A stretch of DNA of 64,000 nt from Sinorhizobium meliloti 4H41 (GTDB lineage: Bacteria > Pseudomonadota > Alphaproteobacteria > Rhizobiales > Rhizobiaceae): the NCBI RefSeq assembly GCF_000375585.1, contig NZ_AQWP01000001.1:496001-560000 (forward strand). Direction: 5' to 3'. The notes under the pieces were generated by a model. That model ran no database searches and was not told the DNA's origin. It saw only the letters and a list, made by a program, of their open reading frames with translations. Numbering within the stretch: position 1 is the stretch's first letter; each line of letters begins with the position of its first letter. The position numbers and the translations under genes were made by a program. Shown in pieces: positions 25,357-25,398 of the stretch.

Positions 25357-25398
25357 GGCATGATGCCGCACCGCCGTACCGGTTTCGGTCCGGTATCC
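25357..25398 (+). promoter_or_regulatory. Class III leader element upstream of icpA
   Basis: GGCATGATGCC (a perfect palindrome around one base), then GCACCGCCG and two CCGG-containing half-sites able to pair. The same element stands in front of the three flagellin genes. It lies 181 bases from the proposed GTG start of icpA. Confidence 0.55.

What the first reader, a model, noticed from the sequence alone, without database searches (positions are those of the whole stretch)
25357..25398. Shared palindromic leader element in front of icpA and all three flagellin genes
Seen: GGCATGATGCC (GGCAT-N-ATGCC) followed by ACCGTCG-like sequence and two spaced CCGG half-sites occurs at 25357, 53780, 55258 and, with one change, 56754. 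For the flagellins it is about 75-85 bases before the ATG. I found no copy upstream of fliF, motA, flgB, visN or rem. Known: in S. meliloti, flagellin and che/receptor genes are class III, whose specific regulator is poorly defined, and FlbT acts on flagellin leader RNA in Caulobacter. Inferred: a class III promoter or RNA element linking filament and chemotaxis synthesis.
Basis: partly seen in the sequence, partly recalled or inferred. Interest (0 to 1): 0.65.

Follow-up and report, generated by a model that had tools for sequence, protein, structure and literature searches.

The report
Hairpin leader of late flagellar genes
The shared 'palindrome' in front of the flagellin and chemotaxis genes of this rhizobium is probably the first hairpin of a conserved piece of messenger RNA that can cover the ribosome-binding site of flagellin genes, so it probably helps time the making of the flagellar filament and the steering system.

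Summary
Four copies lie ahead of three flagellin genes and icpA. The bare 11-mer is not specific (22 genomic places), but the extended element is: a covariance model built without this genome ranks exactly these four sites first. It is probably not a DNA palindrome. Across 171 distinct flagellin leaders of named relatives the outer pair of NGC-AUGAN-GCN' takes all six standard pair types while the palindrome's central T is free. About 12-13 nt on, CCGG...CCGG encloses 4-18 nt; then UGUCCC(UU) is complementary to, and varies with, the Shine-Dalgarno. I read a leader RNA: a two-hairpin core plus, in most flagellins, an anti-Shine-Dalgarno. The core also heads che operons in ten other genera, once without icpA. 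No Rfam match was found. The 25 FlbT proteins examined from element-bearing genomes group together; 15 of 40 FlbT genomes lack the element. FlbT as binder is inferred. Against: no start site or binding was measured, and single-sequence folds are ordinary and mostly miss hairpin 1.

The parts
25324..25333 (+). box ACGTCGGAAT upstream of the icpA/che leader, at the place of the flagellin box ACGACGGGTT (3 mismatches), candidate promoter element
   Evidence: conserved in the genus
25357..25367 (+). hairpin 1 of the che-operon leader (GGC-AUGAU-GCC)
   Evidence: whole-genome model hit 37.7 bits; in 29 of 29 congeneric relatives examined with at most 1 change
25377..25395 (+). hairpin 2 (UACCGG-7 nt-CCGGUA)
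   Evidence: formed in the minimum-energy fold
25541..27142 (+). icpA, protoglobin plus chemoreceptor signalling domain, first gene of the che operon (GTG start conserved)
27149..33487 (+). rest of the che gene run: STAS, cheY, cheA, cheW, cheR, cheB, cheY, cheD (co-transcription inferred from order and spacing)
53738..53747 (+). promoter-like box ACGACGGGTT upstream of flagellin gene 1
53780..53790 (+). hairpin 1, flagellin 1 leader
   Evidence: 55.8 bits; not in its minimum-energy fold
53802..53825 (+). hairpin 2 (ACCGG...CCGGU), flagellin 1 leader
   Evidence: not in its minimum-energy fold
53827..53832 (+). anti-Shine-Dalgarno UGUCCC
   Evidence: paired with the SD in the minimum-energy fold
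53851..53856 (+). Shine-Dalgarno GGGACA, complementary to 53827-53832
53863..55068 (+). flagellin gene 1
55258..55268 (+). hairpin 1, flagellin 2 leader
   Evidence: 43.1 bits
55281..55295 (+). hairpin 2, flagellin 2 leader (CCCGG...CCGGG)
55298..55305 (+). anti-Shine-Dalgarno GUCCCUUU
   Evidence: not paired in the minimum-energy fold
55320..55327 (+). Shine-Dalgarno AAAGGGGC, complementary to 55298-55305
55333..56520 (+). flagellin gene 2
56753..56763 (+). hairpin 1, flagellin 3 leader (CGC-AUGAC-GCC, outer pair C-C broken)
   Evidence: 34.0 bits
56776..56787 (+). hairpin 2, flagellin 3 leader (CCGG-4 nt-CCGG)
56838..57803 (+). flagellin gene 3 (its leader has only a weak anti-Shine-Dalgarno pairing)

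Best explanation
The element is the core of a structured 5' leader RNA of the late (class III) flagellar transcripts. Core: hairpin 1 (NGC-AUGAN-GCN'), a linker (consensus about CCGUCGUU) and hairpin 2 (CCGG-loop-CCGG). In most flagellin leaders an anti-Shine-Dalgarno UGUCCC(UU) follows and can pair with the Shine-Dalgarno just before the ATG. The che-operon leader and the last flagellin of several clusters keep the core without that output. Proposed mechanism: by default the anti-Shine-Dalgarno lowers flagellin translation; a protein, most likely FlbT (alone or with a flagellin-like partner), binds the two-hairpin core and changes access to the start site, coupling filament and che synthesis to flagellar assembly. 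Shown here: presence, conservation, position, compensatory changes in helix 1 and in anti-SD:SD, near restriction to flagellin and che genes, co-inheritance with one FlbT group. Inferred: that it is transcribed as drawn, that the SD is blocked in cells, that FlbT is the binder, and the sign of the effect.
For: Helix 1 outer pair is standard in 147 of 171 distinct leaders against 117 +/- 3.3 shuffled, maximum 130 of 2000; on 78 diverse leaders it has 17 cells changed on both sides, and the next pair goes from G-C to A-U in two leaders, which I had added by hand. The palindrome's T is free (43%). RNAalifold finds helix 1 and four pairs of helix 3 unaided. Whole structure: 87.2% of cells paired (83.5 shuffled, at most 49.6 when slid), covariation score 0.188 (0.131 shuffled, 0 of 500 as high; at most 0.104 slid). 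Hairpin 2: spacing from hairpin 1 tight (152 of 167 at 12-13 nt) but loop 4-18 nt, hard to reconcile with paired DNA half-sites; outer pair standard in 85 of 167 against 49 +/- 4.6; genome G057 has UCGG..CCGA for CCGG..CCGG, keeping the pairs. Anti-SD:SD: pairing score 15.8 in true pairs, 15.0 +/- 0.12 with SDs swapped between genes, 10.4 with anti-SD letters shuffled; a Bosea leader has UGUUCC/GGAACA. Specificity: the top four hits in the 6.8 Mb genome are three flagellins and the che operon. Of 20 chosen hits fetched from other genomes 10 head che operons (one without icpA), 6 flagellins, 1 a chemoreceptor, 3 look like chance. In the family 31 of 33 FlbT genomes and 1 of 8 FlbT-less genomes (that one E 0.047) have a hit. 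FlbT tree: all 25 FlbTs of element genomes lie on one side of one branch, support 92/83. Literature passages: FlbT translationally induces LafA in Bradyrhizobium (PMC8429497); FlbT mechanism 'unresolved', degradation of targets in Caulobacter, proposed activator in Brucella (PMC4347634); class III transcripts under FlbT control in Caulobacter include flagellin and Che (PMC9812332).
Against: Folding energies of eight single leaders are not unusual (z -1.45 to +0.12). As drawn, hairpin 1 is in the minimum-energy fold of 2 of these 8 (none of the window's three flagellins), hairpin 2 in 6 of 8, the anti-SD:SD helix in 3 of 7 flagellin leaders. The number of pairs with a change on both sides, 7, is not clearly above shuffles (5.2; 46 of 500 as high). 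The inner pairs of hairpin 2 hardly vary, its outer pair is non-standard in 35 of 78, and RNAalifold did not predict it. No transcription start was available, so transcription of the element is inferred. FlbT is not sufficient: 15 of the 40 FlbT genomes put in the tree lack the element (one of them, G330, has no flagellin found). The FlbT association is confounded, since flagellin type, FlbT type and element may simply be inherited together. Of 26 order-level genomes outside the family only 2 have a hit below E 0.001.
Confidence: 0.6

Rival explanations
1. It is DNA: an operator or promoter element of class III promoters bound by a dimeric activator or a special sigma factor.
For: Dyad-like GGCAT-N-ATGCC and paired CCGG sites; a positioned box ACGACGGGTT lies about 30-50 nt upstream, so a shared promoter probably exists nearby; the RNA hairpin 1 is not the favoured fold of most single leaders.
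Against: Centre of the dyad not conserved, outer positions covary as base pairs; CCGG-CCGG spacing varies 4-18 nt; the motif continues into anti-SD:SD complementarity; the element is much better conserved than the sequence upstream of it.
Confidence: 0.19
2. A leader RNA that works without FlbT: an mRNA-stability hairpin, a target of a small RNA, or an RNA switch or thermometer sensing something else.
For: The anti-SD architecture is common to many translational leaders; FlbT genomes without the element exist.
Against: No Rfam family, known thermometers and riboswitches included, matches the window's sites or ten other loci; the core is also present where no anti-SD exists (che leaders), which suits a binding site; co-inheritance with one FlbT group.
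Confidence: 0.18
3. Paralogous baggage: the leader is alike only because flagellin genes arose by duplication.
For: The flagellins are tandem paralogues.
Against: The same core heads unrelated che operons in ten other genera, and compensatory changes need selection.
Confidence: 0.03

Closest known systems
FlbT-regulated flagellin (fljK) 5' leader of Caulobacter crescentus
   Same: A flagellin leader under post-transcriptional control coupled to assembly; the FlbT family is present here; passages seen in PMC4347634, PMC7591256 and PMC9812332.
   Different: The fljK leader sequence was not compared. Caulobacter FlbT represses, rhizobial/Brucella FlbT is reported to activate. FlbTs of element genomes form a separate group; on which side Caulobacter FlbT falls was not tested.
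flg-Rhizobiales RNA motif (Rfam RF01736)
   Same: A structured RNA upstream of flagellar genes in Rhizobiales (association with flagellar genes recalled).
   Different: 141 positions, three stem-loops (PMC3765529 passage). No match at the window's four sites; 0 of 40 genomes over its cut-off; its one weak match precedes a gene that I read by eye as flgF.
Translational leaders that sequester the Shine-Dalgarno (riboswitches, r-protein leaders, thermometers; recalled as a class)
   Same: An upstream segment complementary to the SD, behind a separate folded core.
   Different: No Rfam family matched; the core also occurs without the SD-blocking output.

Membership tests
flg-Rhizobiales RNA (RF01736) | covariance-model score at or above the gathering score (55 bits) | tested here: not met
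   no match in the window up to E 10; 0 of 10 other loci at gathering; 0 of 40 genomes over cut-off
FlbT-regulated flagellin leader | lies in the flagellin mRNA between start site and SD | tested here: inconclusive
   68-91 nt before ATG in 180 of 196 leaders, but no start site seen
FlbT-regulated flagellin leader | flbT in the same genome | tested here: met
   own genome has FlbT; in the family 31 of the 32 genomes with a hit have FlbT, the exception at E 0.047
FlbT-regulated flagellin leader | FlbT binds the leader RNA | not testable with these tools
   needs a binding assay
FlbT-regulated flagellin leader | sequence or structure like the Caulobacter fljK leader | not tested
   Caulobacter leader not identified by name; only 3 weak coding-like matches besides this genome among 240 genomes of the class, at reduced sensitivity
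SD-sequestering translational leader | anti-SD complementary to and covarying with the SD | tested here: met
   83.6% of helix-3 cells paired in 78 leaders; but the helix is in the minimum-energy fold of only 3 of 7 flagellin leaders, and it is absent in che leaders and some last flagellins
Palindromic DNA operator | both half-sites conserved symmetrically, fixed spacing | tested here: not met
   the T of ATGCC is T 73, A 40, C 29, G 29 of 171; CCGG-CCGG spacing 4-18 nt

The most novel reading that the evidence does not exclude
One portable RNA core (two hairpins) tags the late flagellar regulon, flagellins and the che operon, in the Rhizobiaceae and several other families of Hyphomicrobiales. 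It is read by a dedicated FlbT subfamily that senses assembly. The output is modular: an anti-SD switch in flagellins (default off, FlbT opens it), a different output in che leaders. This would explain why FlbT is a repressor in Caulobacter and an activator in rhizobia, and why no class III transcription factor has been settled.
Probability: 0.35. Interest if true: 0.8.

Novelty: new variant of a known kind. Interest (0 to 1): 0.62.

Why it matters
How rhizobia and agrobacteria delay flagellin and chemotaxis synthesis is unsettled, and FlbT's mode of action is described as unresolved in the review passage seen (PMC4347634). A defined core shared by flagellin and che leaders, with base pairs that can be swapped, makes both questions directly testable in ordinary laboratory rhizobia, and gives a model with which class III transcripts can be found in unstudied genomes.

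Tried and rejected
Bare 11-mer as the signal: rejected, 22 places in the genome. RF01736: rejected. Thermodynamic stability as proof of structure: not supportive. icpA start at the upstream ATG 25429: out of frame and not conserved; GTG 25541 kept. Hits in the E 0.001-0.01 zone: three of those fetched looked like chance (L244, L248, L252), so weak hits were not counted as members without context. Class-wide scan: the other three matches among 240 genomes were weak and coding-like; only about 19 first-look candidates per genome were scored, so absence outside the order is not proven. Solved structure of FlbT: no match by sequence.

Selection to bear in mind: the named flagellin loci are the 80 best matches to this genome's flagellins, so close relatives dominate. 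Of 197 flagellin ORFs one lacked upstream sequence and 16 lacked the core at up to one mismatch; by eye 8 of those 16 carry a shifted or altered hairpin 1 and 8 nothing clear. 180 were found, 171 distinct; hairpin 2 and anti-SD were scored on the 167 in which two CCGG could be found. By simple arithmetic with equal base frequencies, about 3% of leaders would pass the core test by chance. The model's seed was 78 leaders chosen for diversity: one false core (L071) dropped, two with an altered second pair (L048, L092) kept from six added by hand. The icpA check covers the 29 congeneric relatives whose loci were returned, of 31 with a full match. The 20 hits fetched were picked by me, mostly solitary ones far from the flagellins, out of the longer lists; the che and chemoreceptor assignments of L241 and L250 are partly by eye. 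The FlbT tree used 40 of 52 FlbT genomes (12 element-bearing ones left out); G037 and G049 were labelled as lacking the element although each has one weak hit (E about 0.06), because these did not precede flagellins.

Full report
Observation. The four copies exist at the stated places; the fourth has two changes rather than one. The 11-mer alone is weak evidence: it occurs at 22 places in the 6.8 Mb genome, and only three of those are these leaders; 18 of the other 19 lie in long stop-to-stop frames. The longer motif is far above chance (three of the four sites and nothing else, against 0.01 expected). A covariance model built only from other genomes ranks the four sites first in the whole genome, E 2e-10 to 5e-5.

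Anatomy from relatives. I took 197 flagellin genes from 77 named loci of Hyphomicrobiales. 180 of 196 usable leaders carry GCATGANGC with at most one mismatch, 68-91 nt before the ATG. Three parts stand out. Hairpin 1, NGC-AUGAN-GCN': the outer pair is standard in 147 of 171 distinct leaders against 117 +/- 3.3 after shuffling, and all six standard pair types occur. The base that would complete the palindrome varies freely, so the stem is what is kept, not the dyad. Hairpin 2, CCGG-loop-CCGG: it starts 12-13 nt after the hairpin 1 core in 152 of 167, but the loop ranges over 4-18 nt. Its outer pair varies with some compensation (85 of 167 standard against 49 expected); its inner pairs hardly vary, except in genome G057, which has UCGG/CCGA. 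Anti-Shine-Dalgarno: UGUCCC with a U- or C-rich tail is complementary to GGGACA or AAGGGGCA just before the ATG, and the two sides go together across genes and genomes. RNAalifold recovers helix 1 and part of helix 3 without being told, but not helix 2.

The chemotaxis copy. icpA is a protoglobin chemoreceptor and the first gene of the run icpA-STAS-cheY-cheA-cheW-cheR-cheB-cheY-cheD. Its element is present in 29 of 29 congeneric relatives examined. From other genera I fetched 20 chosen model hits: 10 head che operons, of which 9 have an IcpA homologue first and one (L241) has STAS, cheY and cheA without icpA (read by eye); 6 head flagellins, 1 a transmembrane chemoreceptor, 3 look like chance. 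The element therefore belongs to the che operon rather than to icpA. The che copies keep both hairpins but not the anti-Shine-Dalgarno, which suggests a binding core with interchangeable output (inference).

Distribution. In the family 32 of 41 genomes, one per genus, have a hit at E up to 0.05. In a mixed set of 34 genomes 10 have a hit below 0.001; outside the family that is 2 of 26. Named loci from other families with the element include Pseudovibrio, Filomicrobium, Bosea, Tardiphaga, Bradyrhizobium and Aquabacter. Among 240 genomes of the class only this genome and three weak coding-like sites match, with reduced sensitivity. In the leaders I printed from order-level genomes that lack the element, the flagellins are mostly of other types, judged by eye.

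Candidate reader. FlbT is the only regulator of flagellin leaders in Alphaproteobacteria that my paper searches brought up. In the family 31 of 33 FlbT genomes have the element and 1 of 8 without FlbT does, at E 0.047. Of seven family genomes without element tested for flagellin, six have none, so this association is partly just 'has flagella'. More telling, in a tree of 40 FlbTs all 25 from element genomes lie on one side of a branch (support 92/83), 14 from element-less genomes on the other, and the fifteenth (G330, no flagellin found) next to the element group. Block inheritance of a whole flagellar system would give the same picture. Passages seen say that FlbT translationally induces lateral flagellins in Bradyrhizobium (PMC8429497), that its mechanism is unresolved with opposite signs in Caulobacter and Brucella (PMC4347634), and that class III transcripts under FlbT control in Caulobacter include flagellin and Che (PMC9812332). 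A blocked Shine-Dalgarno with FlbT as opener would fit the activator sign in rhizobia; this is inference.

Promoter. A box ACGACGGGTT (up to 2 mismatches) lies upstream of the core: 84 of 94 hits fall 30-47 nt before it, and 83 of 171 leaders have one starting within 50 nt. A related box, ACGTCGGAAT, sits at the same place before icpA and in 3 of the 10 other che leaders. It could be the class III promoter, which would put the transcript start near hairpin 1. PMC3616915 names flaA, flaC and flaD among S. meliloti genes with CtrA motifs (passage); its start-site tables were not seen.

Limits. No start site, binding or expression data were available. Single-leader folding energies are ordinary, and the minimum-energy folds contain hairpin 1 as drawn in 2 of 8 leaders, hairpin 2 in 6 of 8 and the anti-SD helix in 3 of 7 flagellin leaders; the case for structure rests on covariation. 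One of the covariation measures (number of pairs with changes on both sides) is not clearly above shuffles. Searches of the paper library showed no description of this element in their listings, which are capped, or in the passages seen; subscription papers are mostly not held, and older work on flagellin transcript starts could not be read. Verdict: a real, specific and conserved element, most likely a new leader-RNA family of the late flagellar regulon, with FlbT as the leading but unproven partner.

Noticed in passing
window 25294-25315 and L235, L236, L245: A block GCAAGGAATTAACCATAAACAT about 43-64 nt upstream of the che-leader core is conserved in the genus and wholly or partly in several other genera; probably the che-operon promoter or a CtrA-type site.
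   Followed up: partly
window 53738-53747; 170 upstream regions: ACGACGGGTT-like box strongly positioned 30-47 nt upstream of hairpin 1 in about half of flagellin leaders, with a relative before icpA.
   Followed up: partly
L029:9009-9081, L035 near 9115, L036 near 7597, window 56753-56838: The last flagellin of several clusters keeps the two-hairpin core but has lost or weakened the anti-Shine-Dalgarno pairing.
   Followed up: partly
L241 (G306:C66:27900-31200): A che operon that lacks icpA (STAS, cheY, cheA directly downstream, read by eye) still carries the element.
   Followed up: partly
L250 (G036:C8:63400-66600): A related element UGCAUGAAUGCA...CCGG...CCGG precedes a transmembrane chemoreceptor gene in a more distant genus.
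   Followed up: no
window 19492-19555, - strand: Weak model hit (21.3 bits) with a long inverted repeat CUAUCCCUCUCC...GGAGAGGGAUAG; probably a terminator or repeat, unrelated.
   Followed up: no
G330: Genome with an element-type FlbT but no flagellin found by Pfam Flagellin_N; flagellin may be lost, diverged or masked.
   Followed up: no
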